A stretch of 32,716 nt of DNA. Origin: Pseudomonadota bacterium (GTDB taxonomy: Bacteria > Pseudomonadota > Alphaproteobacteria > Acetobacterales > Acetobacteraceae). The position numbers were made by a program, and so were the translations under genes. Under the pieces are notes generated by a model. That model ran no database searches and was not told where the DNA came from. It was given only the letters and a program-made list of their open reading frames with translations. The stretch is taken from NCBI GenBank assembly GCA_021801465.1, contig JAJYXY010000125.1, positions 1-32,716 on the forward strand. The letters are read 5' to 3'. Of the stretch, positions 3,162-23,195 are shown piece after piece (the stretch's first letter is position 1; each line of letters starts with the position of its first letter).

Positions 3162-3629
3162 CTACTCCACATAGATGCGTATTTCCCGCGCGGTGACGCC
3201 TTTTTCGGTGCGTGCCGACGTGCTGATGTCATCGCCGCGGATCCCGTCATTGGTCATCGCGTCCTCGAGCCGGCGCACATCATAGCGGCCTTTTTCGATG
3301 GCGCGGCTGTCTTTGTCGGGGTTTCCGCTCGCCGGCACCACCGTCACGACATGGTATTTGGCGTCTGGGCGGCGGGTTTGCGCAAGTTCGAGCACGGATT
3401 TCAGTTGCGCATCGTAATTCGGCGGGGTGCCGTCGAAGCGGATCGAGATCAAGGGCAGATGGCTTCCGGGCTTTAGCGCCTCGGCGACGAAATCGGGTGC
3501 CGGCGGCACGGGTTTGGCGCCAAACGTCGTCTGATCGATGATCTTGCACGCAGCGAGAAGCAAAAACAGGGCAAGCGGGGCGATGTGCCGGTTGAGAGGG
3601 CGCAACAGGCTGGGCGTGGGCAAGGTCAT
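3162..3629 (-). CDS. Small conserved lipoprotein, function unknown
   Basis: The product is 155 residues. The N-terminus has basic residues, a hydrophobic stretch and a lipobox LLLAAC, so it is predicted to be a lipid-anchored periplasmic or outer-membrane protein with a mature N-terminal cysteine near residue 28. The remainder is soluble; the C-terminal half (YHVVTVVP, then YDVRRLEDAM and ending REIRIYVE) loosely recalls pilus-assembly CpaD or OmpA-like proteins, but I cannot assign it. The reading frame is open further upstream, but the ATG at 3629 gives the signal sequence and overlaps the stop of the glycosyltransferase by four bases (ATGA), so the two are probably translationally coupled. 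It ends 41 bases from the convergent regulator gene. Confidence 0.75.
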   Translation of the reverse strand: MTLPTPSLLRPLNRHIAPLALFLLLAACKIIDQTTFGAKPVPPAPDFVAEALKPGSHLPLISIRFDGTPPNYDAQLKSVLELAQTRRPDAKYHVVTVVPASGNPDKDSRAIEKGRYDVRRLEDAMTNDGIRGDDISTSARTEKGVTAREIRIYVE

Positions 3630-4762
3630 TCTCGGTCGGCGGTGACATTCATCAGCCACACTATAGGCTTGGCAGGCTTCATTCGTGAAGCCCGGGGCGC
3701 AAAGCCGAGCGCCTCGCACATCGCCGCCGCCGCGACCGCGGGGCTGTAACGTGCCTCGATGCGTTTTTTGCCGCACGCCGCGATCGCGTGTGCCGCGCGC
3801 GGCCGGCGATGAATACCCCGCATTGCCCGCGCCGCCGCGAGGATATCGGGGTCGGCCCATTCCTGCCCCTCGACGCCAGGATATTCCCAATCCGAGATAG
3901 GGATTTTGCGATAATCGATGATGAAGGCGCTCTCGCGATCGGCGAAATCATTGGTGCCGGAATAGCCGGTGAGGATCACCGGTTTGCCGAGCCACATCGC
4001 CTCCGCCGGGCCCCGCCCGAAGCCCTCGGCGCGATGGAGCGAGACGAAGGCGTCGGTCGCCTCGATGAGGGCGATCACCTCGGCGCGGTCGAGCGCGGCA
4101 TCGCGAAGCTCGATGCGCGGATCGAGCGCGAGATCGGCGAGCCGCCGCCAGTCCGCGGGTGCTTGCGTTGCGCCTTGGGTTTTGATCAACAATCGGACCT
4201 TTTCCTCCCCGCTCGGGAAAGCCGAGCAAAATGCCTCGATCACCGCCTCTGGGTTCTTGCGGCGGACATGCGAGAGGAAATCGAACATGAAGAAGAAAAC
4301 CGTCTCCCCCTCTGGGATGCCGAGTGCCGTGCGGCTTGGTTGTGTACGTTTGGTGGGTAATGAGACCACCGGCGGCACCAGCCGCACCGGCCGCAAGTTT
4401 TCGCGGGCGAAGGCGGCGCGGGAGAAGTCGCTTGCCGCCCAGATTTCGTCATAAAACGAAAACGCATGGCGCCAGCGCCGCGGCAGCCATTCGAGCTCCC
4501 ATGCCCAGGCGCCGATGGCCCGTTTTGCCACGATGCCGCGGCGGGCGAAGAAGCGCGCGTCTTCGAGCGCGGTATCGGCATTGAGGAACACGAGATGTGT
4601 CTCGACCGCGATCCCAGCCTCCGCCGCGACTGGCGTGCCATCGGGGAGAAAAACACCGCCTCCCCGGCGGTCGAGGATGAAAAAATCGTCGCAGCCGAAA
4701 TCGCGGAGCGCCATCGCCGCCGCGCGCAAATCTCCTCCCCGGCCCGACGGGGTCAGAAACAT
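3626..4762 (-). CDS. Glycosyltransferase, family 4-like
   Basis: Glycosyltransferase of 378 residues from the ATG at 4762. The C-terminal nucleotide-sugar-binding half has the E-x7-E motif in HRAEGFGRGPAEAMWLGKPVI, and the linker strand FFFMFDFLSHVRRKNPEAVIEAF and an AWELEWLP block in the N-terminal half are typical of GT4 enzymes working on surface polysaccharides or proteins. The start is uncertain: the residues RLLLSG just before this ATG look like the first strand of a GT-B fold, so translation may begin at an upstream TTG or CTG overlapping the end of the PEP-CTERM gene. It lies five bases downstream of that gene and overlaps the lipoprotein gene by four bases, so all three form one transcription unit. 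Donor and acceptor sugars cannot be deduced. Confidence 0.82.
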   Translation of the reverse strand: MFLTPSGRGGDLRAAAMALRDFGCDDFFILDRRGGGVFLPDGTPVAAEAGIAVETHLVFLNADTALEDARFFARRGIVAKRAIGAWAWELEWLPRRWRHAFSFYDEIWAASDFSRAAFARENLRPVRLVPPVVSLPTKRTQPSRTALGIPEGETVFFFMFDFLSHVRRKNPEAVIEAFCSAFPSGEEKVRLLIKTQGATQAPADWRRLADLALDPRIELRDAALDRAEVIALIEATDAFVSLHRAEGFGRGPAEAMWLGKPVILTGYSGTNDFADRESAFIIDYRKIPISDWEYPGVEGQEWADPDILAAARAMRGIHRRPRAAHAIAACGKKRIEARYSPAVAAAAMCEALGFAPRASRMKPAKPIVWLMNVTADRE

Positions 4763-4767
4763 GCCGC

Positions 4768-5499
4768 TCAGCAATAATCGCGCGGAGAGCCGGGGCGGAT
4801 TTCGATTGGCGTGGGCGTTTGCCGGGGCAATCGTTTGCGCACCGCCGCCAGCCCGGCAAAGACCGTCAGCAAAATTGACCACACGGGCGGCTCCGGGATG
4901 GGCGCGTAGTCGTAAATCAGCGTCGTCGTCATCGTGAGATTGTCGGAGAGAACACATGTGACGGCCCCGACAACGGTGCAAAAATCGGAGTCTTCGGAAA
5001 CCCGCCCGTCAACCGAAACCTTGCCGATACCGACATAGCCCGCGACACTCGAGGCGTTTTCGGCGGCCATGCCGGGATCAAGCGGATGACTCTGATCGAC
5101 CGGAAGCGAGACCGCAACCGCCGAGCCGGCCGTGCCCGACCAGTTTATAATACCGAACATATCGGCATCTAACGTATAAGTCGTCAGTGGATAGCCGGGC
5201 GCATTGAAGGAATAGCCGGTGCTCATCCCCCAAACGGCGCCACATCTGCTTAGTGCAGTGCATGACGTTCCCCTCAGCGCAATGCTGACGTTATAGCTGC
5301 CTGTTCCGGCAAAACTCACTGCTACGGCTTGCAGTGTTCCGAGGGCAGGGTTGAACTGATTGAATGTTCCGCCAAATTCGCTACCGTTGGAGGTTTGACC
5401 TGTCACTGTATTGGTTTGGGTGATCACGTCAGCGTGTGCGCTGATGGCGCCAAAAACCCAGGGCGCGACAGAAAAAAGAGCGATGGCAAATTTTCGCAT
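4768..5499 (-). CDS. PEP-CTERM surface protein, choice-of-anchor E-like
   Basis: Exported protein of 243 residues. It has a signal peptide (MRKFAIALFS to AHA, cleavage near residue 23), a Thr/Ser/Gly-rich beta-sandwich body resembling the choice-of-anchor E domain (FNQFNPALGTLQAVAVSFAG near the start, TTTLIYDYAPIPEPP at the end), and a C-terminal sorting region made of PEP, a hydrophobic helix (VWSILLTVFAGLAAV) and a basic cluster RKR. In this family an exosortase cleaves at the PEP motif in the inner membrane; no exosortase gene is in the window. A strong Shine-Dalgarno sequence GGAGG sits 7 bases before the ATG. Unusually, about 20 residues follow the basic cluster, where the family normally ends within a few. 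The next gene downstream is a glycosyltransferase, in keeping with the known link between PEP-CTERM proteins and surface glycans. Confidence 0.88.
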   Translation of the reverse strand: MRKFAIALFSVAPWVFGAISAHADVITQTNTVTGQTSNGSEFGGTFNQFNPALGTLQAVAVSFAGTGSYNVSIALRGTSCTALSRCGAVWGMSTGYSFNAPGYPLTTYTLDADMFGIINWSGTAGSAVAVSLPVDQSHPLDPGMAAENASSVAGYVGIGKVSVDGRVSEDSDFCTVVGAVTCVLSDNLTMTTTLIYDYAPIPEPPVWSILLTVFAGLAAVRKRLPRQTPTPIEIRPGSPRDYC

Positions 5500-11625: not shown

Positions 11626-12093
11626 TCAGGGGCGGCGGGCGGCGAAAAAGCCGCGCAGGAGTGCCGCGCATTCGCACTCGCAAACGCCCCCCACCAATTC
11701 CGGGCGATGATGGCAGGAACGCGCCTCAAACACGCGCGCGCCATGTTCGACGCCGCCGCCCTTCGGGTCATAGGCGCCGAAGATCAGCCGCCGGATGCGA
11801 AAGAAACTCGCTGCCTGAGCGCACATCGGGCAGGGCTCCAGCGTCACCACGAGGTCGCAATCGGGGAGCCGCGGCACGCCCAGCCGCGCCGCCGCCGCCC
11901 GCAGTGCCAGCATCTCGGCATGCGCGGAAGGATCGGCCCGGGCCTCGGTTTCGTTGCCGGCAACTGCGAGGAGGGTGCCATCGGCCGCAACCACAACCGC
12001 ACCCACCGGCACCTCGCCCCGCGCGCCCGCCGCCCGCGCGGCCTCCAGCGCCGCCACCATCGCCACGCCCGCGCTCGTCGGGCCCTGATTCAC
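11626..12093 (-). CDS. tadA: TadA-like tRNA adenosine/nucleoside deaminase
   Basis: Zinc-dependent cytidine/adenosine deaminase fold of 155 residues. The catalytic HAE is at residues 58-60 (Glu60 as proton shuttle) and the zinc cysteines are in PCPMC at 88 and 91. GEVPVGAVVV near the start and the C-terminal HHRPELVGGV and ECAALLRGFFAARR are typical. TadA converts A34 to inosine in tRNA-Arg(ACG). The CHHRPE variant in place of the usual NH-rich segment is the form I associate with a second alphaproteobacterial clade annotated nucleoside deaminase, so a different substrate is possible. The GTG at 12093 overlaps the glycosyltransferase stop (GTGA), implying coupled translation; the ATG at 12060 would give a more usual TadA N-terminus (144 residues). 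Confidence 0.82.
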   Translation of the reverse strand: MNQGPTSAGVAMVAALEAARAAGARGEVPVGAVVVAADGTLLAVAGNETEARADPSAHAEMLALRAAAARLGVPRLPDCDLVVTLEPCPMCAQAASFFRIRRLIFGAYDPKGGGVEHGARVFEARSCHHRPELVGGVCECECAALLRGFFAARRP

Positions 12094-13379
12094 GTGCCCC
12101 TGCCACGGCGCGAGGTTTGCCGCTGGGCTGGCGGCTTGGTCGCGGGGGCGATCGCCGGGCGCATGCCTGAGAGCTGCTCGATCAGGCGTGCCATCCGCTC
12201 GAGATAATAGTCCATTGCGAGATGGCGCTCGGCATAGTCGCGGGCATTGGCGCGCAGCCGCTCGGCGAGCGCGCGATCCTCGAGCACCGACAGTACGCCC
12301 TCGGCGAGCCGCGCCGGCTCGTGAAAGGGCACGAGCAAACCGTTGTCGCCATCGCGGATGAATTCGCGCACCGGCTCGGTATCGCTGCCGATGACGGCGC
12401 AACCGCTCGCCAGCGCCTCACGCAGCGACCACGAAGCAACGAACGGGTAGGTGAGATAGACATGCGCGTCCGAGCGCTGCAACAGCCGCCGGTAATCACC
12501 GTAATCGATCCGCCCGAGGAGATGCACCCGGCTGGTATCGAGCCGATCCTTGACCTCATTGAAAAAATAATCCCGCCATGTGCCATTGGCGAGTTTCGCG
12601 CCATAGCTCACGCCATCGCCGCCGACGAGGATCACGCGCACATCCCGCCGAGCCTGCATCAGGTGCGGCAGGGCCCGCATCATGACGTGATAGCCGCGAT
12701 ACGGTTCGAGATCGCGGGCAACGAAAGTGACCAGTTTTTCGCCTGGCGTGACGGTGACGTCTTTGATGGAAAACGGCGCTCGCGCCACTGCCAGATCCGG
12801 CGCGCACAGCGCGAGATCCGCGCCTTCGGGGACGATCGAAATGCGCGAGCGTGCCCAGTCGGGATAGGTCGCGTGCTGAAAGCGGGTCGGTGTCTGGCCA
12901 TGCCCGGAGAGGTTGAGGGCGAGCAGATTGACCGTGTTTTTTGCCCGGATATTAGAGAGCATTTGCGGCGCGATCGGGAATTCTGGATCGAAACCGACAT
13001 CGAGGCCGTCAGTATGATAGAAAAACTCGAAATAGCCGAGCATCGGCGTCCCCGGCCAGACATCGCAAAGATCAAGCATCTCGCCCCAGCCGTGATGGCC
13101 GATGATGATGTCGGGCTGAAACCCAAGTCCACGAAGCTGCGTTGCCGCCCGCGCCACTGCCTCGGCGCGGATCAGCGCCGGCTCGATCTCGCGCACATTG
13201 CGGTGGGCGTCCTTGCACGGTTCGCGGCCGAGGCGATAGACGAGCTTTCTGACCCCCGAGATGGCATTGTTGTTCTCGTCGGTGAGAAAGAGAATCTCGT
13301 GCTCCCTGGCCGCTCCGAGATAACGCAGCAGGTGGAGATATTGGCCGGGAAAATTCTGATGAACGAAAAGGAAGCGCAC
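12090..13379 (-). CDS. Glycosyltransferase, family 4
   Basis: GT-B fold glycosyltransferase of 429 residues. The N-terminus VRFLFVHQNFPGQYLHLL is a classic first strand plus sugar-acceptor loop, and this GT4 subgroup is found in several capsule and surface-glycan clusters. The C-terminal half has FVARDLEPYRGYHVMMRALP (domain linker) and SLREALASGCAVIGSDTEPVREFI, which replaces the usual E-x7-E glutamates with a conserved-looking Ser/Glu pattern. The frame is open 83 codons further upstream, inside the ChW-like gene, but the GTG at 13379 starts exactly at the conserved strand. The gene begins 10 bases after the ChW-like gene stop and overlaps the deaminase by four bases. It has no membrane segment and would act in the cytosol or at the inner membrane face. 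Confidence 0.85.
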   Translation of the reverse strand: MRFLFVHQNFPGQYLHLLRYLGAAREHEILFLTDENNNAISGVRKLVYRLGREPCKDAHRNVREIEPALIRAEAVARAATQLRGLGFQPDIIIGHHGWGEMLDLCDVWPGTPMLGYFEFFYHTDGLDVGFDPEFPIAPQMLSNIRAKNTVNLLALNLSGHGQTPTRFQHATYPDWARSRISIVPEGADLALCAPDLAVARAPFSIKDVTVTPGEKLVTFVARDLEPYRGYHVMMRALPHLMQARRDVRVILVGGDGVSYGAKLANGTWRDYFFNEVKDRLDTSRVHLLGRIDYGDYRRLLQRSDAHVYLTYPFVASWSLREALASGCAVIGSDTEPVREFIRDGDNGLLVPFHEPARLAEGVLSVLEDRALAERLRANARDYAERHLAMDYYLERMARLIEQLSGMRPAIAPATKPPAQRQTSRRGRGT

Positions 13380-13389
13380 GCAAAATCCG

Positions 13390-14568
13390 TTATCGGCCGC
13401 GGCGCGGCGGTGGCGCCTTGCCGGCGCGGGCGGGCGGTTTGGCGCTCGGTTTGGCGGCTGGTTTTGCCGCGACCGAGGGGCGCGCTGGCTCCTTGGCGCT
13501 CGCTTTGGCGGCAGACTTTGGCGTCTCGGCAGTGGATTTTCCCACCGGCTTCTCGGGCTCACGGCGCTGGAGCGTGATTTGGAACGCCTCCAGCGGGGCG
13601 AGGCTGTCGGCCTCGCAGGCTTCGCCATCGCCGACCGGGCCGATCACCGTGCCATCGACGAAGCTCGCCGAATAAAGACAGCGATGGGTTTCGCGCGCCT
13701 TGCCGCGGAGCCGCACGCGCAACCCCAAAAGCGGCAGCGCCATACCGCGGCTGCCACAGAGCTGCCCGCCCTCGACCCAGGGAGAAAGCCAGCCGCGCCC
13801 GAGAACCGCTTGATATTCGATGTCTTGCGGCGCGATCCCACCGCGTGGCGTGAGCGCGAAGCCCTCGACCCAGCGCTTGCTGCCGCGATCGCCGACCCAT
13901 TCGCCGAACATCGCCCCGATATCGCCACGCAGCTGCACATGGGCACCGATTTCGAAATTGCCGGCGAGCGGGATGGCCCCTACCGGCGCCGCTCTCGTCG
14001 CCATCGGTGCCGCGCCCGCCGCCGCAGCGACCCCAGGTGGAAGACCCCCAGGTGCCATGACAGGTGCGACGACCACCGGTGGCGCCGCATTGGCGGCAGG
14101 CTGAGCGGCCGGGCGCCTTGGGTCGGCGAGTGGGGTCGGACGGGCCAGGGATTGGGACGCGGCCTCCTCGGCAAGCCGCAGCACTTGCAGGCGCGGCGCC
14201 GTCTCTGGGCCGCCTTGCGCCTGATAGATAGTGACGAGAATTTGCGCCGGCCCCTCGCTGACGCGCACCAGCGCGGCATCGGCCGCGCCACTCAGCCAGC
14301 CATCCGCCCGGAACGAAGTGATGCTGATCGCCTGCGGCCGGCTCGCTGCCCCCGGCGGCAGGGAAAGCCGCACCCCCGGCAGGCCCGAGGCATCATCTGG
14401 CCGACGAGCGCCTGGGGTCTGGACGATGCAGAAAAGCCCAGCATCCAGCGTCATCAAATGTGCCGAGGTGCGGATTTCGGTGAACATTTTGGCGCTCGCG
14501 CCCAAGGGATTCGTGCTCGAGGGGGGCGCGCTGGGGGCCTTCGCGCTCGGGGCGCCGGGGTCGGGCAT
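13390..14568 (-). CDS. Protein with three ChW-like (hydrophobic W) repeats
   Basis: Protein of 392 residues that I cannot assign to a named family. Residues 30-135 look like a beta-rich domain, 140-205 is a Pro/Ala-rich linker, and 335-392 is a Lys/Pro/Ala-rich basic tail. Between them are three consecutive units: about 208-241 (AHVQLRGD then EWVGDRGSKRWVEGFAL), 250-288 (YQAVLGRGWLSPWVEGGQLCG) and 298-333 (YSASFVDG then DGEACEADSLAPLEAFQITL). The Y/H-x-A/Q start, GW..WV..G centre and L-x-G/A-x-x-I/V-x-L end fit the clostridial ChW repeat pattern, a module usually found on Gram-positive secreted proteins. No signal peptide is visible, so it may be cytosolic or an unconventional export substrate. 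It is embedded between two glycosyltransferase genes in a type I secretion cluster. Confidence 0.7.
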   Translation of the reverse strand: MPDPGAPSAKAPSAPPSSTNPLGASAKMFTEIRTSAHLMTLDAGLFCIVQTPGARRPDDASGLPGVRLSLPPGAASRPQAISITSFRADGWLSGAADAALVRVSEGPAQILVTIYQAQGGPETAPRLQVLRLAEEAASQSLARPTPLADPRRPAAQPAANAAPPVVVAPVMAPGGLPPGVAAAAGAAPMATRAAPVGAIPLAGNFEIGAHVQLRGDIGAMFGEWVGDRGSKRWVEGFALTPRGGIAPQDIEYQAVLGRGWLSPWVEGGQLCGSRGMALPLLGLRVRLRGKARETHRCLYSASFVDGTVIGPVGDGEACEADSLAPLEAFQITLQRREPEKPVGKSTAETPKSAAKASAKEPARPSVAAKPAAKPSAKPPARAGKAPPPRRGR

Positions 14569-17638: not shown

Positions 17639-19420
17639 TCAGGCGCTTTGCCCGGCGCGGCGCGGCGCCGGCTCCTCCTCGGCGGCGGGCAGATGGGCGA
17701 GATCGGCGGCGGCATCGGTCATGCCTTGCGCCATTGCCCGCTCGAGCCATTGCCGGGCTTCGCGCACATCGCGCCGCCCGCCGAGGCCGCGCGCGAGATA
17801 ACGGCCGAGCATCATCTGCGCGTGGCCGTGCCCGCGTTCGGCGGCGCGACGATACCAAAGCGCGGCCTCGGTGCGCTCCTCCGGCACGGCGTGGCCGCCG
17901 CCGAGCATCGCGCCGATCGCGAACATCGCTCCGACATGGCCATGTTCGGCGGCGCGGCGGAACCAGGCGAGCGCCGCCGGGTGGTCCTCGTGGCCGGCGC
18001 CGCCGCTGACCAAAAGCTCAGCCAACGCCACTTGTGCCTCGACCATCCCCGCTTCAGCGGCGCGCGTGAGCCAGGCCGCGCCTTCGGCGGGATTGGCGGC
18101 AACCCCGCGGCCCTCGATCAGCATGCGGCCATACCAATATTGCGCGTTGGCGATGCCATCGGCGGCGCGCCGCATCCATTGCGCCGCCTGGCGGTCGTCG
18201 CGCTCGATCCCGACCCCTTCGGCGAGGCAGACACCAAAATTGTAGGCCGCCATCAAATCGCCGGCGAGCGCCCCCTCCTCGAACCATTGGCGGGTGCGTT
18301 GGGTTTCCTCGGGCCCAGCAACGCCCTGGCGTACGAGATTGGCGAGATCGGCCTTGGCCTGTGCATCGCCTGCTTCGGCAGAGAGGCGAAACCAGCGCGC
18401 CGCTTCCATGGGGTCGCGCGCGGTGCCGGCGCCGGTGAGGTGCATGAGGCCGAGGGTGCGCGCTGCCGTGCGATGGCCGGCTTCAGCGGCGCGGCGAAAC
18501 CACAGCGCGGCTTCGGCATAATTGGGCGGCAATTCGCCGCCGCGGGCGTAAAGATCGCCGACCAGCGCCGCCGCTTCGGCATCGCCAGCCAGGGCCGCGC
18601 GGCGGAGCCAGGATTCGCCCTCTTGCATATTTTTGGCGACCCCTCGCCCTTCCAGTAAGGCAAGGCCAAGCCGCGCCTGCGCTGGCCGGACACCTTTTTC
18701 CGCGGCGGTGCGATAAAAGACCACCGCCTGCGCCGGGTCGCGGGTGAGCCCATCGCCGCGGTCATGCATTTCCCCGAGAAGGTAATGCGCGCCGGGAAGA
18801 CCGGCAGCGGCGGCAGCAGCCAATTGCTTGGCGGCCTCGCGAAATTCCTCCTCGCTCGGGGTCCCGCGCAGCAAGGCGAGCGCGAGACCGAGCCTCCCTT
18901 GCGGCGAGCCAGCCTCGGCGGCACGGCGATACCATACTTCGGCCGCGCGGAGATCGCGGCCTTCTTCCGGGCCCGAGGTGAGGATATAGCCAAGCAGAGC
19001 CTGGCCATCGGCTGAGCCCGCGGCGGCGGCGCGCTGCGCCCAGAGGCGGGCCGCGGCAAAATCTGGCACACCCGCCGGCCCCGCCCCTGCCGGTCGGGTC
19101 AACGTCTCGGCGGCGATCCCGTCCTGCGGCCCGAGGCCGCGCAGATAAATGGTCGCGAGCAAGGCTTGCGCCTCGACGAAGCCTTGCTCGGCCGCCGCCT
19201 TGAGCCAACGCCCAGCCTCGCTCGCGCTGGCCGGCACGCCCGCGCCTTCGAGATAGCAGCGCCCGACTCGGTATTGCGCTTCGGCAAGCCCTGCTTCGGC
19301 GGCGCGGGCGAGAAGCGGGAAGGCACGATCCCAACGCCCCCCTTCACCGAGTTCGAGGGCGTGCCGCAAGCCCGCGCGCGGCGACCAAAGACCGAGAAGG
19401 CGTCTGACGACCCCGACCAT
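17639..19420 (-). CDS. Sel1-repeat (SLR) protein
   Basis: Protein of 593 residues built almost wholly of Sel1-like repeats of about 36 residues, roughly fourteen of them. Each carries the pattern A-x-x-W/Y-x-x-x-A-A-E-x-G-x-x-x-A-x-x-x-L-G, with G-x-G-V loops; AAEAGSPQGRLGLALA and AAEAGHRTAARTLGLMHL are clear examples. Such solenoids are protein-binding scaffolds. There is no signal peptide; the N-terminus MVGVVRRLLGLWSPRAGL is basic and amphipathic and might touch the membrane. The gene starts 18 bases after the HlyD gene and ends 44 bases before the preferred start of the large glycosyltransferase, so it is an operon member. I infer an adaptor role linking secretion with glycosylation, without direct proof. 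In-frame repeats make it prone to length changes. Confidence 0.9.
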   Translation of the reverse strand: MVGVVRRLLGLWSPRAGLRHALELGEGGRWDRAFPLLARAAEAGLAEAQYRVGRCYLEGAGVPASASEAGRWLKAAAEQGFVEAQALLATIYLRGLGPQDGIAAETLTRPAGAGPAGVPDFAAARLWAQRAAAAGSADGQALLGYILTSGPEEGRDLRAAEVWYRRAAEAGSPQGRLGLALALLRGTPSEEEFREAAKQLAAAAAAGLPGAHYLLGEMHDRGDGLTRDPAQAVVFYRTAAEKGVRPAQARLGLALLEGRGVAKNMQEGESWLRRAALAGDAEAAALVGDLYARGGELPPNYAEAALWFRRAAEAGHRTAARTLGLMHLTGAGTARDPMEAARWFRLSAEAGDAQAKADLANLVRQGVAGPEETQRTRQWFEEGALAGDLMAAYNFGVCLAEGVGIERDDRQAAQWMRRAADGIANAQYWYGRMLIEGRGVAANPAEGAAWLTRAAEAGMVEAQVALAELLVSGGAGHEDHPAALAWFRRAAEHGHVGAMFAIGAMLGGGHAVPEERTEAALWYRRAAERGHGHAQMMLGRYLARGLGGRRDVREARQWLERAMAQGMTDAAADLAHLPAAEEEPAPRRAGQSA

Positions 19421-19438: not shown

Positions 19439-20851
19439 TCATGGTTCGCGCATACCCTCGGAGGCGACCGGTAAGACGCGACCGAGCATATAATTGAGGA
19501 TGGTGCGCCGGCCGACCTTGATATCGGCGGTGACCGGCATGCCGGGCGCGAGCTTGAACCCCTCCGGCACGCCATGCAGCTTGATTTGGTCGAGAGAGAT
19601 GCGCACGCGATAGAAGATCTTCCCCCCCGGCACCGGGTCATGCGGTTGGTCGTTGGCTTGGCCGGCGAGATCACTTTGGGTGAAGCTGTCGGGGCTGATC
19701 ACCCGCACCTCGCCCTCGGCATCGCCGTATTGGGTGAAGGGGAAGGTATCGAATTTGATCGCGACCGGGTCGCCGACACGCAAGAACCCGGCATCCGAGC
19801 CCGCGGCATTGGCCTCGACCAGAAGTGGGGCGGAAGCTGGCACTAGGGTGATGAATTGGCTCCCCGGCTGCAAAACCGAGCCGACCGAAACCTTGGCGAC
19901 GGTGAGCACGATCGCATCTTCAGGCGCGCGCAATTCGACGAGCGCGCGCCGCAGCTCGGCCTTTTTGAACTGCTCCTCGGCGTCCGAAAGCTTGCGCCCT
20001 TGTTCGGTGAGGTTTTGCAGCACTTCGGCGTGCCAGTTCTGCAAATAGGCATCGCGTTCGGCGACCATCGCGCGCAAATCGCGTTTGCCGGTCTCGGCGG
20101 TATCTTCTGAAAGCGCCAGATTGCGCGCCATTTCGATGCGGTTATCCGCCGCCGAGAGCGAATTGAGCCGGCTTCCGACCTTGAGATCCTGCAATTCGCG
20201 GCGCATGCCCTCGACATCGGAGGCAACTGCGAGCCGCTGTCGATAATAGGTTGCCTCGGCGAGATTGCGGGCGATCGTGGTCTCGAGGCTGTTGATCTTT
20301 TGCTGGTAGTTTTCGAGCTTGAAGGATTTCTCCGCCGCGCGCTGGGCGAAAACCGCCGCTTGCAGCCGGGTCGCGTCGCTATCGAGGGGCGGGCTATAGG
20401 GTTTGTCCGTCGCTTCGGCGGTGAGGCGGTCGACCTCGGCGCGATAGCTCCGCACCTGTTCGCGGAGCGCGCCGAGATCGGCGGCGGCGAAGGTCGGGTC
20501 GAGTTCGGCGAGAAGCTCGCCCTTATGGACGAGCTGGCCCTCGTGCGCCGCGATCAAGCGCACGATCGCGGTATCAAGTGGCTGCATGACGAGGGTGCGG
20601 GCTTCTGAGATCACCTTCCCCTGGGCCGTCACCACCTTGTCGATTTTGATCAGGCCGGAGGCGAGAAAAAACGTGGTCACCGCCGCCGACAGCAGCCAAA
20701 TGACGCCACGCGCGGCGCCTTTCGGCCGCGTTGCCAGCAAGGCGGCCGAGGGTGACTGAAATTCGAGCAAGGCATCGGCGAAGACCCGGTCCGCTGGTGC
20801 GGCTCGGGCCGGCGCGAGGGGAGCCGTGCGGATGAGCGCGTTTTCAGCCAT
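19439..20851 (-). CDS. HlyD-family type I secretion adaptor
   Basis: Membrane fusion protein of 470 residues. A cytosolic N-terminus of about 48 residues precedes a single transmembrane helix (about 49-68, GVIWLLSAAVTTFFLASGLI). A lipoyl-like strand (VTAQGKVISEARTLVMQPLDTAIV) follows, then a long alpha-helical coiled coil (about 130-300), the second lipoyl half (LRAPEDAIVLTVAKVSVGSVLQPG, broken here for brevity) and a C-terminal barrel with KFDTFPFTQYGDAEGEV, the classical HlyD signature. It would bridge the ABC ATPase to a TolC-like outer-membrane channel. The ATG at 20851 is one base after the ABC gene stop and has GGAGAG 4 bases before it, so the two are co-translated. No tolC homologue is in the window. 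The frame is open upstream inside the ABC gene but that is not used. Confidence 0.92.
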   Translation of the reverse strand: MAENALIRTAPLAPARAAPADRVFADALLEFQSPSAALLATRPKGAARGVIWLLSAAVTTFFLASGLIKIDKVVTAQGKVISEARTLVMQPLDTAIVRLIAAHEGQLVHKGELLAELDPTFAAADLGALREQVRSYRAEVDRLTAEATDKPYSPPLDSDATRLQAAVFAQRAAEKSFKLENYQQKINSLETTIARNLAEATYYRQRLAVASDVEGMRRELQDLKVGSRLNSLSAADNRIEMARNLALSEDTAETGKRDLRAMVAERDAYLQNWHAEVLQNLTEQGRKLSDAEEQFKKAELRRALVELRAPEDAIVLTVAKVSVGSVLQPGSQFITLVPASAPLLVEANAAGSDAGFLRVGDPVAIKFDTFPFTQYGDAEGEVRVISPDSFTQSDLAGQANDQPHDPVPGGKIFYRVRISLDQIKLHGVPEGFKLAPGMPVTADIKVGRRTILNYMLGRVLPVASEGMREP

Positions 20852-20852
20852 A

Positions 20853-23195
20853 TCACTCTCCGGTCGCGATTTGCGGTGGCATCGAGGTTGGGCGCTGGCC
20901 GCCCTGGCCCTCGAGATGCCGGTTCTGCTGCAGCCAAAGCTGGCGATAGATGGCGCAGCGTTCAAGCAGGTCGCGATGTGGCCCGAGATCGACGACCTTG
21001 CCGCGCTCGAGCACGAGGATCGCATCGCATTCGGTGAGCGAGGACAGGCGATGCGAGACGATCACCATCGTCCGCCCGCGCGCGATGCGGAGCAGATTGG
21101 CATTGACCAAAGCCTCACTTTCGGGGTCGAGCGCGCTGGTCGCCTCGTCGAGGATCAGGATGCGCGGGTCATTGATCAGGGCGCGGGCGATCGCGAGGCG
21201 CTGGCGCTGGCCGCCGGAGAGATTGGCCGATCCCTCCTCGATGAAGGTCTCGTAGCCTTGCGGCAGGCGTTCGACGAATTCCTCAGCACCGGCAAGCCGC
21301 GCCGCCCGCACCGCGTCCTCGAGCGTGAGGCCGGGCCGGCCAGCGATGATGTTTTCCCGCACCGAGCCGCGAAAGAGGAAATTGTCCTGCATTACGACGC
21401 CGAAGCTACGGCGAAGATAGGAGAGATTGATTTCGCGCAGATCGACGCCGTCGATTTTTACATAGCCTTCGTACTCGCGATTGATCCCTTGCAAAAGGCG
21501 GGTGATGGTCGATTTGCCCGACCCGCTCTTGCCGACGACGCCGAGCATGGTGCCGGCCGGTACGCTGAAGCTGACATCCTCGAGGGCGCGGATTTTCGAC
21601 CCAGGATAGGTGAAATTCACTTTCTCGAAGCTGATCGCGCCGGAAAACCGCGGCCGCAAGCCTTCGCCGGCATTTTTCATCTCGCTCGGCTGGTTGAGCA
21701 CCATGCCGACTTCGCCGATCGAGCTCCGTACCTCCTCGAGATCCTCGATCAGCCGCGCCATGCCAACGAGTGGTGCCGCGACGCGCACGCCAAGCAGCAT
21801 GAACGCAATCAGCGCGCCCGGCTGCACGCTACTCTCCCCGGAAAGCACGAGATAGGCGCCGACCAGGAGCACACCGCGCTCGATGAAGCGTTCGATCGGC
21901 GTTACGATCGTGTTTGGCCAGTTGCCGAGCCTGCCCGCCTGCAGCCGCAGACGCGCCGAGTTGGCGACCTTGAGATCCCAGAGATCGCGTTGCTGCGGCT
22001 CGATCGCGAGCGATTTCACTGTCCGCACGCCATGCACGCTCTCCACCATCACCGTGCTTTTTTCGATCTCCGACTGGATCACCTTGGCAATCACGCGGCG
22101 CATCGGGGGGAGGAAGATCAGGATGACGATGGCGATCAGAACCGCGCCGGCGAGCACCATCCAGGCCAGCGGCGCGCTCATGTAAAACAGCACCGGCAAG
22201 AGAACGAGCAAGGTGAAGCCATCGAGAAACGTCGATAGCAGTTTCCCGGTCATGAAATCCCGCACCTTCCAAATCTGGGAGAGGCGGTGGATGGTCTGGC
22301 CGGCGGGGTTGCGCTCGAAATAAGAGAGCGGCAGGCCGAGCATGCGGTTGAAGATGTGAAGATTGAGGCGGGTATCCAATCTCGCGGCGACCACCGCCGT
22401 AAGCTCGCGCCGGGCATAGCCGAGCGCCGTCTCCCACAATACGGCAAGGCCAAGGATCACCGAGAGCAGCGTCAGGGTGGAGTAGCTGTGATGCTGCAAG
22501 ACGCGGTCGATCACCGCCATCACCAAAAGTGGTGGGATGATGGTGAGCAGGCTGAGCGCGATCGAGGCGATGCTGATATCGCGGAGCGCACCGCGCTCAC
22601 GCAGGACGACACGGGCGATCCAGCCGAGGGTGAAGGGGGCTTCCTCATCGTTGCTGCCCCGCTCGGGGCGGATCAGCAGCACCTCGCCCGACCAGACACG
22701 CTTGAGACGGAGCTCATCGACCGGGGTTGGGTCGTCTTCGGTGCCGGCGCGGGGGTCGCGGAGAAAGACCACATTGCGCGCCGCATTGGCGCCGACCCAT
22801 AGCCCGGCGCTGCCATCGTGGAACAAGATGACTACCGGCGCCGTGCCTTTCAGGTGGGCGATCTGGCGCCAGCTCAGCCGCGCGGCCTTGGCCCAGAGCC
22901 CAGCACCCCGCGCCCAGGCAGCGAGATCGGCGGGCGAAGGCGTCTCGCCCGGGCGGAGACGAAGCTCCTCGCGGTCGAGCACGACACCGTGATGGCGCGC
23001 CGCCGCGATCACCGCGAGAAGCAGCGTCTCCCGCGGGTCGGGGGGCGCATCGGCATTCAGGCCCGTCTCCAGAGATGGGTCAGGTGTCGGGGCAGGCTTC
23101 GGCTTCGCCGATGTCGCCTCGGGCTCTCGGGCCGCTTTCGCGCGCGCTCCATCCGGCTCATGACCGCTTGGCTGCTGCTGATCTTTGCTGTCCAC
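20853..23195 (-). CDS. Type I secretion ABC ATPase/permease, C39-like domain
   Basis: HlyB-like transporter of 780 residues. Residues 1-50 are a Pro/Ala/Lys-rich extension; 52-175 form a peptidase C39-like domain without the catalytic cysteine (LLLAVIAAARHHG where the cysteine would be), so it docks substrate rather than cleaving it. The permease domain with six helices spans about 205-480. The ATPase domain has Walker A GKSGSGKST (555-563), signature LSGGQRQRL (659-667), Walker B ILILDE (679-684) and the switch His715 in VSHRL; all are intact. The non-cleaving C39-like type fits export of large C-terminal-signal (RTX or adhesin) proteins. It is the first gene of the run, and its upstream region carries three 15-base repeats. 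No RTX substrate gene is present here. Confidence 0.93.
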   Translation of the reverse strand: MDSKDQQQPSGHEPDGARAKAAREPEATSAKPKPAPTPDPSLETGLNADAPPDPRETLLLAVIAAARHHGVVLDREELRLRPGETPSPADLAAWARGAGLWAKAARLSWRQIAHLKGTAPVVILFHDGSAGLWVGANAARNVVFLRDPRAGTEDDPTPVDELRLKRVWSGEVLLIRPERGSNDEEAPFTLGWIARVVLRERGALRDISIASIALSLLTIIPPLLVMAVIDRVLQHHSYSTLTLLSVILGLAVLWETALGYARRELTAVVAARLDTRLNLHIFNRMLGLPLSYFERNPAGQTIHRLSQIWKVRDFMTGKLLSTFLDGFTLLVLLPVLFYMSAPLAWMVLAGAVLIAIVILIFLPPMRRVIAKVIQSEIEKSTVMVESVHGVRTVKSLAIEPQQRDLWDLKVANSARLRLQAGRLGNWPNTIVTPIERFIERGVLLVGAYLVLSGESSVQPGALIAFMLLGVRVAAPLVGMARLIEDLEEVRSSIGEVGMVLNQPSEMKNAGEGLRPRFSGAISFEKVNFTYPGSKIRALEDVSFSVPAGTMLGVVGKSGSGKSTITRLLQGINREYEGYVKIDGVDLREINLSYLRRSFGVVMQDNFLFRGSVRENIIAGRPGLTLEDAVRAARLAGAEEFVERLPQGYETFIEEGSANLSGGQRQRLAIARALINDPRILILDEATSALDPESEALVNANLLRIARGRTMVIVSHRLSSLTECDAILVLERGKVVDLGPHRDLLERCAIYRQLWLQQNRHLEGQGGQRPTSMPPQIATGE

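What the first reader, a model, noticed from the sequence alone, without database searches (positions are those of the whole stretch)
13390..14568. Triplicate ChW-like repeats in a signal-less proteobacterial protein
Three consecutive units near residues 208-333 match the hydrophobic W pattern known mainly from clostridial secreted proteins, usually also in threes. Here they sit in a protein without a signal peptide, with a beta-rich N-terminal domain and a basic Lys/Pro/Ala tail, between glycosyltransferase genes. It may bind the glycan or the glycosylated protein made by its neighbours.
Basis: partly seen in the sequence, partly recalled or inferred. Interest (0 to 1): 0.6.

Follow-up and report, generated by a model that had tools for sequence, protein, structure and literature searches.

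The report
Cytoplasmic ChW module paired with glycosyltransferases
A protein module known from enzymes that grip the cell wall of Gram-positive bacteria appears here, apparently inside the cell of an acetic-acid-bacteria relative, as the partner of sugar-attaching enzymes in a conserved secretion operon, and it may help decorate an exported surface protein with sugars.

Summary
Residues 206-336 are a ChW-type three-unit module. Pfam ChW passes its cut-off for the middle unit; a ChW profile from non-proteobacterial units finds units 1 and 2; profile-profile comparison aligns all three in register with ChW triplets of gut phages, Lactococcus, Streptomyces and Nostoc (96.5%, E 1e-9). Unit 3 is weak alone. 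A beta-trefoil is not shown.

The gene is fifth of six conserved in Acetobacteraceae: HlyB, HlyD, Sel1, GT2-GT4, ChW, GT4; all six in order in 52 of 55 long named loci. In seven Azospirillum plasmids and one unnamed alphaproteobacterium both domains are fused to the GT2-GT4 enzyme, with the GT4 downstream. Of 15 fetched ChW/GT clusters without neighbouring secretion genes, 10 (four lineages) have an RTX gene directly upstream; five do not.

Best reading: a non-catalytic glycan- or acceptor-binding subunit of a cytoplasmic glycosyltransferase that modifies a type-I-secreted RTX-like protein. Partnership with the enzyme is well supported; the acceptor is inferred; binding is untested. ChW is known; this setting was not found in the searches made.

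The parts
13390..14568 (-). ChW protein (392 aa): N-terminal beta domain, Ala/Pro linker, three-unit ChW module, basic Lys/Pro/Ala tail
   Evidence: Pfam ChW over cut-off; 44 of 60 same-family genomes and 0 of 40 others have a relative
13561..13953 (-). ChW module, residues 206-336
   Evidence: AlphaFold2 pLDDT 95.2, pTM 0.90 for residues 203-340; hhalign against ChW triplets E 1e-9
13831..13953 (-). ChW unit 1 (residues 206-246), degenerate
   Evidence: i-E 4.3e-6 with a non-proteobacterial ChW unit profile
13696..13830 (-). ChW unit 2 (residues 247-291), canonical
   Evidence: Pfam PF07538, residues 259-289; i-E 5.7e-7
13561..13695 (-). ChW unit 3 (residues 292-336), strongly degenerate
   Evidence: in register in the profile-profile alignment; alone only 0.009 over nine residues
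14155..14478 (-). N-terminal beta domain (residues 31-138)
   Evidence: predicted strands, pLDDT mostly above 80; found in front of the module in Azospirillum fusions and, weakly, in G335
13393..13560 (-). basic low-complexity tail (residues 337-392)
   Evidence: 9 Lys, 5 Arg, 12 Pro, 14 Ala, 4 Glu, 0 Asp in 56 residues
14640..17858 (-). GT2-GT4 two-domain glycosyltransferase, directly upstream; start codon uncertain
   Evidence: Pfam Glycos_transf_2 1.7e-13; GT4 domain and a TPR below their cut-offs
12090..13379 (-). GT4 glycosyltransferase, directly downstream; GTG start inferred by eye, 10 bases after the ChW stop codon
   Evidence: Pfam Glyco_trans_4_3 2.6e-56 and Glycos_transf_1 9.8e-25 (longer ORF)
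17639..19420 (-). Sel1-repeat protein
   Evidence: Pfam Sel1, 11 stretches, 3.7e-71
19439..20851 (-). HlyD-type periplasmic adaptor; start inferred by eye
   Evidence: TIGR01843 348.9 bits against a cut-off of 208.65
20853..23195 (-). HlyB-like ABC transporter with an N-terminal domain
   Evidence: TIGR01846 581.8 bits, best hit but below its cut-off of 725.55; Pfam ABC_membrane and ABC_tran

Best explanation
The protein is a non-catalytic binding subunit of a cytoplasmic glycosyltransferase machine. Its ChW module, related to the cell-wall-gripping ChW triplets of Gram-positive surface proteins, works in cis or in trans with the bifunctional GT2-GT4 enzyme encoded next to it. It holds the acceptor protein or the growing glycan, as lectin domains do for eukaryotic polypeptide glycosyltransferases. 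The downstream GT4 extends or completes the glycan. The acceptor is most likely an RTX-like protein that the operon's HlyB/HlyD type I secretion system then exports to the cell surface. Shown here: ChW homology of the module; a six-gene operon conserved across the family; fusion of the same two domains to GT2-GT4 in other lineages, with the GT4 still downstream; recurrent fusion of the module to other glycan enzymes; RTX genes directly before the GT/ChW genes in four lineages. Inferred: cytoplasmic location, glycan or acceptor binding, RTX acceptor, and order of events.
For: Module is ChW-type. Operon: all six genes in order in 52 of 55 named loci with at least 8.5 kb upstream and 1.5 kb downstream (of 80 loci), and in 19 of 19 long unnamed loci (of 30); the sets share genomes. 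The next conserved gene that is not an antisense shadow of the six occurs in only 11 of 80 loci. Fusion: N-domain plus module at the end of GT2-GT4 proteins in 7 of 7 fetched Azospirillum plasmids (of 10 matched) and in G335, where the N-domain match is weak; Pfam was run on L155 and L179 of these. L064 has GT2-GT4-module. A relative of the window's downstream GT4 (44-47% identical) follows in all nine. Of 18 fetched loci with the module in other contexts, 12 carry glycosyltransferase domains (GT2-GT4, GT61, GT90), 3 methyltransferase domains (L061 below cut-offs), 2 no enzyme family, and 1 is cut by the contig end and was not scanned. RTX gene directly upstream on the same strand in 10 of 15 fetched ChW/GT clusters without neighbouring secretion genes: 7 Azospirillum, L179, L189, L056. 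L179 and L189 were not seeds of the profile.
Against: No binding data. The one mapped ligand of a ChW-type domain that I saw is a peptidoglycan peptide cross-bridge. Five of the 15 clusters without neighbouring secretion genes (L108, L110, L113, L151, L156) have no RTX gene directly upstream by the profile; these carry the main-type ChW gene. Near the main operon the profile found an RTX gene in 1 of the 80 named loci (L113), about 6 kb from the ChW gene on the other strand. Three of 55 long loci lack the secretion genes, so the secretion link is not strict. ChW genes in L055, L188 and L129 have no GT relative in the fetched DNA, and L151 lacks the GT2-GT4. Operon-bearing G034, G037 and G018 have no PF00353 match; G018 has a match to the RTX C-terminal profile, G034 none. 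The N-domain was not detected in L064.
Confidence: 0.47

Rival explanations
1. The GT genes build a secreted or lipid-linked polysaccharide, and the ChW protein binds that polymer or its precursor in the cytoplasm. The type I exporter is co-regulated but acts on another cargo, and no protein is glycosylated.
For: GT2 and GT4 domains are common in polysaccharide pathways (family names). Azospirillum clusters lie near sugar genes: galE, rfbA-D, gmhA. L108, L110 and L113 lack the secretion genes, and five clusters have no RTX gene directly upstream.
Against: No seventh gene, and so no polymerase or flippase gene, is conserved with the six. RTX genes lie directly upstream of the GT/ChW genes in four lineages.
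Confidence: 0.23
2. The ChW protein is itself exported by the neighbouring HlyB/HlyD without a signal peptide and acts as a surface lectin or adhesin, as ChW proteins of Gram-positive bacteria do.
For: No signal peptide is apparent, and HlyB/HlyD genes lie in the same operon. Known ChW proteins are cell-surface proteins (PMC5817068 and PMC6700490, passages).
Against: The same N-domain and module are the C-terminus of GT2-GT4 enzymes, and the module is part of GT61, GT90 and methyltransferase proteins, which are expected in the cytoplasm. Pfam finds no RTX repeats in it, and it ends in a basic low-complexity tail.
Confidence: 0.12
3. The module is a protein-protein scaffold: it binds and stabilises the GT2-GT4 enzyme and, through its basic tail, the membrane or nucleic acid, without contacting glycan or acceptor.
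For: Close linkage and fusion to GT2-GT4; a basic tail in many homologues, though short in some.
Against: The module is also attached to unrelated enzymes (GT61, GT90, methyltransferases), which points to a shared ligand more than to one partner enzyme.
Confidence: 0.13

Closest known systems
Clostridial hydrophobic W (ChW) repeats, PF07538, of Gram-positive surface proteins and endolysins
   Same: Unit 2 passes the Pfam cut-off; the three units align in register with canonical triplets. A review says it was suggested that ChW domains act in triplets (PMC5817068, passages).
   Different: Those proteins are on the cell surface and are thought to bind the wall. This one has no apparent signal peptide and belongs with glycosyltransferases; units 1 and 3 have drifted.
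Gram-positive-type phage lysins (predicted structures)
   Same: Foldseek against predicted viral proteins: A0A8S5QW05 (putative cytoplasmic protein), A0A8S5VEA7 (lysin), A0A8S5NUR8 (lysozyme) and A0A8S5LRY5 (PlyB-like endolysin), probability 1.00, TM 0.65-0.75 by query length over 136-154 alignment columns; three at E<=0.001, the fourth 0.0021.
   Different: 13-18% identity. I could not check that these four carry ChW units or what hosts their phages have. The Lactobacillus/Lactococcus lysin domains did not align above column shuffles.
Eukaryotic glycosyltransferases with C-terminal lectin domains (polypeptide GalNAc transferases, recalled; MGAT4A, PMC9296478, search listing only)
   Same: Catalytic domain plus a separate sugar-binding domain that steers the enzyme.
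   Different: No relation tested or claimed. Here the binding domain can also be a separate protein, and sugar binding is not shown.
Accessory Sec systems that glycosylate an adhesin in the cytoplasm before export (recalled, no call)
   Same: Dedicated glycosyltransferases encoded with a dedicated exporter and, in some clusters, the substrate.
   Different: Sec-type export in Gram-positive bacteria; here type I secretion and a ChW subunit.

Membership tests
ChW repeat, PF07538 | Pfam curated score reached | tested here: met
   23.8 bits against 22, residues 259-289; 28.3 bits in the whole-genome search
ChW repeat, PF07538 | Tandem units, typically in threes | tested here: met
   hhalign E 1e-9, 123 columns, three units in register with canonical triplets; unit 1 4.3e-6, unit 2 5.7e-7, unit 3 only 0.009; internal unit comparison not significant
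ChW repeat, PF07538 | Conserved Gly-Trp motif in the units | tested here: inconclusive
   GW present and W260 invariant in unit 2; unit 1 has GD instead, as the Nostoc triplet does; unit 3 has no GW
ChW repeat, PF07538 | Extracellular location (usual, not part of the sequence definition) | tested here: inconclusive
   No signal peptide or membrane segment by hydropathy, but a type I exporter lies in the same operon
Beta-trefoil lectins | Beta-trefoil fold | tested here: inconclusive
   AF2 pTM 0.90, three runs of short strands; no PDB match with E<=0.001; best VIA Z 3.5, rmsd 3.8, 90 aligned
Type I secretion ABC transporter (TIGR01846 HlyB) | Curated score of TIGR01846 reached | tested here: not met
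   581.8 bits against 725.55; still the best of 189 families. I call it HlyB-like, not a TIGR01846 member
Type I secretion adaptor (TIGR01843 HlyD) | Curated score of TIGR01843 reached | tested here: met
   348.9 bits against 208.65
Peptidoglycan-binding lysin domains of Lactobacillus/Lactococcus phages | Profile similarity to these domains | tested here: inconclusive
   hhalign probability 0.9%, no better than shuffled columns; 10-sequence profile
Protein-glycosylating glycosyltransferase systems | Glycan attached to a named protein acceptor | not testable with these tools
   needs mass spectrometry of exported proteins with and without the GT genes

The most novel reading that the evidence does not exclude
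Acetobacteraceae carry a family-wide, undescribed pathway in which a cytoplasmic GT2-GT4/ChW/GT4 machine glycosylates RTX-like proteins that a dedicated type I system then exports. Its targeting module was recruited from the ChW cell-wall-gripping module of Gram-positive bacteria and turned inward to read the acceptor or the nascent glycan. Azospirillum keeps the substrate gene, a single fused GT2-GT4-ChW enzyme and the GT4 side by side on plasmids.
Probability: 0.38. Interest if true: 0.75.

Novelty: new variant of a known kind. Interest (0 to 1): 0.6.

Why it matters
If right, it gives a function to a conserved unnamed operon of acetic acid bacteria and their relatives, links type I secretion to cytoplasmic protein glycosylation, and shows a cell-wall-binding repeat used as a glycosyltransferase targeting module. 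It also makes the open question of what ChW repeats bind directly testable on a small module, predicted with high confidence, whose presumed acceptor is encoded next to it in Azospirillum brasilense Sp7.

Tried and rejected
Single-sequence scan of genome contigs found no relative; the alignment A1 then found 302 stretches, of which the best 80 were kept. PDB by sequence found nothing for the protein and one chance-level row for the module profile (E 1.2). PDB by fold found nothing for the module at E<=0.001, and no beta-trefoil family stood out. The whole-protein model matched only common beta arrangements in the N-domain (best Z 5.8, rmsd 3.3, 90 aligned). Internal repeat detection by unit profiles was not significant. 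Comparison with Lactobacillus/Lactococcus lysin domains was no better than shuffles and was followed by a comparison with proteins in which Pfam finds ChW units above cut-off.

Co-occurrence of the ChW gene with RTX-like C-termini: in the 36 same-family genomes, 22 of 27 ChW-bearing and 2 of 9 others have a match at E<=1e-12 (Fisher p 0.0025). I do not rest on it: all seven seeds came from genomes or records that carry a ChW gene, the threshold was set afterwards, relatedness is uncorrected, and G009 may miss the operon because its assembly is broken (a congener, G488, has the module). Regex search for RTX motifs in the 120 loci then fetched for it and the window gave one ORF. Whole-genome searches use a capped first look, so absences are not proof of absence.

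Counting also the clusters that lost the secretion genes gives 10 of 15.

Full report
Observation. The ORF at 13390-14568 (minus) encodes 392 residues. Pfam reports ChW (PF07538) over its curated cut-off in one stretch, residues 259-289. NCBIfam and a sequence search of the PDB give nothing. It is the only ChW match found in this genome assembly, which is about 87% complete.

Is it really a triplet? I aligned 60 homologous modules (the window plus 59 of the 80 loci). AlphaFold2 on residues 203-340 gives pLDDT 95.2 and pTM 0.90, with strands in three successive runs. For an outside standard I took proteins in which Pfam finds ChW units above cut-off: two human-gut phage contigs and plasmid-borne proteins of Lactococcus, Streptomyces and Nostoc, seven in all. 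Profile-profile comparison aligns 123 columns with all three units in register (probability 96.5%, E 1e-9). A unit profile built only from those outside proteins finds unit 1 and unit 2 in the window protein (4.3e-6, 5.7e-7) and nine residues of unit 3 (0.009). Over the 60 related sequences the counts at 0.01 are 59, 60 and 4. Of 2040 shuffles, 29 reach 0.01, 3 reach 0.001 and none 1e-4; when unit 3 is searched alone 23 of 68 hits fall below 0.01, best 8e-4, mostly its last strand. The one outside triplet that I compared pairwise, from Nostoc, is 35% identical over 74 residues. Against this, unit-against-unit comparison inside the family is not significant. The triplet therefore rests on the outside comparison, not on visible self-similarity.

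Fold. Foldseek against the PDB finds nothing at E<=0.001, and VIA gives at best Z 3.5. Against predicted viral proteins it finds four phage proteins, three of them named lysin, lysozyme or endolysin, at TM 0.65-0.75 and probability 1.00; three of the four have E<=0.001 and the other 0.0021. I could not check that these carry ChW units. The beta-trefoil suggestion is therefore open.

Distribution. A relative occurs in 44 of 60 same-family genomes and 0 of 40 others. The module profile finds 138 of 200 genomes of the family, 6 of 385 drawn from the class, 4 of them in the family, and 7 of 398 drawn from the phylum, 5 of them in the family. Most named loci bear titles such as Acetobacter, Acidisphaera, Rhodopila, Ameyamaea, Acetobacteraceae or a higher group; a few metagenome bins are titled Terriglobia, Solirubrobacterales or Nitrosovibrio. 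From this I infer that the family is Acetobacteraceae. The gene is present in genomes of about 1.9-2.2 Mb.

Neighbourhood. The gene is the fifth of six on one strand: HlyB-like ABC transporter, HlyD adaptor, Sel1-repeat protein, GT2-GT4 enzyme, ChW protein, GT4 enzyme. Among the 80 named loci, 55 extend at least 8.5 kb upstream and 1.5 kb downstream of the ChW gene; 52 of these have all six in order. The exceptions are L108, L110 and L113, which lack the three upstream secretion/Sel1 genes (L108 also lacks the GT4). The enzyme GT2-GT4 is directly upstream in 74 of 76 loci with at least 1 kb upstream (not in L129 and L151), and the GT4 directly downstream in 76 of 78 with at least 0.6 kb downstream. 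Among 30 unnamed loci, 19 are long and all 19 have the six; the two sets share genomes. Flanking genes vary: the next cluster that is not an antisense shadow occurs in 11 of 80 loci.

Fusions. In seven of seven fetched Azospirillum plasmids (10 matched) both the N-domain and the module form the C-terminus of a GT2-GT4 relative; in G335 (L179) the same holds with a weak N-domain match. Pfam was run on two of these eight: L155 and L179 have GT2 and GT4 domains, with TPR below cut-off in L155 and above it in L179. In L064 the module ends a GT2-GT4 protein whose N-domain was not detected. In all nine a relative of the window's downstream GT4, 44-47% identical, follows. Of 18 fetched loci with the module in other contexts (these fusions counted as L064, L155 and L179), 12 carry glycosyltransferase domains (GT2-GT4, GT61 with or without GT2, GT90), 3 carry methyltransferase domains (L060, L185, and L061 below cut-offs), 2 match no enzyme family (L192, L193) and 1 (L058) is cut by the contig end and was not scanned. 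Further diverged matches were not fetched. A fused protein whose parts are separate neighbours elsewhere is standard evidence that the parts work together.

Possible acceptor. Fifteen fetched clusters have the ChW gene or fusion with GT2 and/or GT4 genes, no neighbouring secretion genes, and upstream DNA. In ten an RTX gene lies directly upstream on the same strand: seven of seven Azospirillum clusters, G335 (L179), G524 (L189, order RTX-ChW-GT2-GT4) and G023 (L056). PF00353 is above cut-off in the five of these ten that I scanned (L155, L179, L189, L056, L230); the other five match the RTX C-terminal profile. The remaining five clusters, L108, L110, L113, L151 and the Acetobacter aceti plasmid L156, carry the main-type ChW gene and have no match to that profile directly upstream. 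The profile was seeded with L155 and L056 but not with L179 or L189, which it found at 4e-34 and 8e-18. In 134 loci (2.13 Mb) it hit five places: these four and L113, where the gene lies about 6 kb from the ChW gene on the other strand. ChW genes in L055, L188 and L129 have no GT relative in the fetched DNA, and L064 has no upstream DNA. The window's genome has two RTX-like genes elsewhere, of 478 and 527 aa. Operon-bearing G034, G037 and G018 have no PF00353 match, though G018 matches the C-terminal profile.

Mechanism. The most economical reading is a cytoplasmic glycosyltransferase complex, GT2-GT4 plus the ChW subunit plus GT4, that modifies an RTX-like protein before or during type I export. 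The ChW module would supply acceptor or glycan binding. Partnership with GT2-GT4 I hold at about 0.9, ChW homology at about 0.95, and the RTX acceptor at about 0.5; binding itself is untested. The literature passages say that ChW is a cell-surface domain, was suggested to act in triplets and has no settled ligand (PMC5817068; PMC8051824); that a ChW-annotated phage lysin part anchors proteins on Lactococcus (PMC6700490); and that a Lactobacillus lysin domain labelled ChW appears to bind peptidoglycan, and a similar one an amidated cross-bridge (PMC10610939). So a peptide ligand is as possible as a sugar.

Novelty. Searches combining ChW or PF07538 with glycosyltransferase or Alphaproteobacteria, and Acetobacteraceae, Acetobacter or Azospirillum with type I secretion, glycosyltransferase, Sel1, RTX, glycosylation or calcium-binding protein, listed no paper that by title and abstract start describes this system. 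The Asaia genome paper among them counts Sel1 repeats and glycosyltransferases but its passages do not link them (PMC8156966, passages). The library is open-access only, and I read no paper in full. In the plasmid records, the Acetobacter aceti copy is annotated hypothetical protein and 9 of 10 Azospirillum matches glycosyltransferase. I therefore rate it a new variant of a known kind: a known repeat in a setting that I did not find described.

Noticed in passing
L155:7099-14448; L230:1497-8883: Azospirillum plasmids carry an annotated calcium-binding (RTX) gene directly before a GT2-GT4-N-domain-ChW gene, followed by methyltransferase, GT4 (relative of the window's GT4) and methyltransferase genes.
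   Followed up: yes
L189:5267-10509: RTX, ChW, GT2 and GT4 genes in a row; the usually single GT2-GT4 enzyme appears as two ORFs.
   Followed up: partly
L057:5766-7802: A GT61 protein with two ChW modules in tandem at its C-terminus.
   Followed up: no
L060:6663-8285, L061:1044-2141, L185:6247-7356: ChW module at the C-terminus of proteins with a SAM-dependent methyltransferase domain (L061 below cut-offs), possibly sugar-modifying.
   Followed up: no
L209:3857-4408: Nostoc plasmid protein that is little more than a ChW triplet behind a twin-arginine-like N-terminus (motif recalled, not tested); its units have GD like unit 1 here.
   Followed up: partly
L063:7112-7402: A stand-alone partial copy of the N-domain (97 aa) in G018, away from the operon.
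   Followed up: no
window 4768-5499 (-): Secreted-looking 243-aa ORF whose C-terminus resembles a PEP-CTERM sorting signal (motif recalled, not tested), beside another GT4 gene at 3626-4981.
   Followed up: no
L156:11959-14568: Acetobacter aceti plasmid copy of ChW and GT4 amid IS elements, with a Hint-domain protein about 8 kb upstream.
   Followed up: partly
L055:1810-2790, L188:1-936: Diverged ChW paralogue in two genomes of one genus, beside a large gene that looks like glnE by eye, with no GT2-GT4 or RTX match in the fetched stretch.
   Followed up: no
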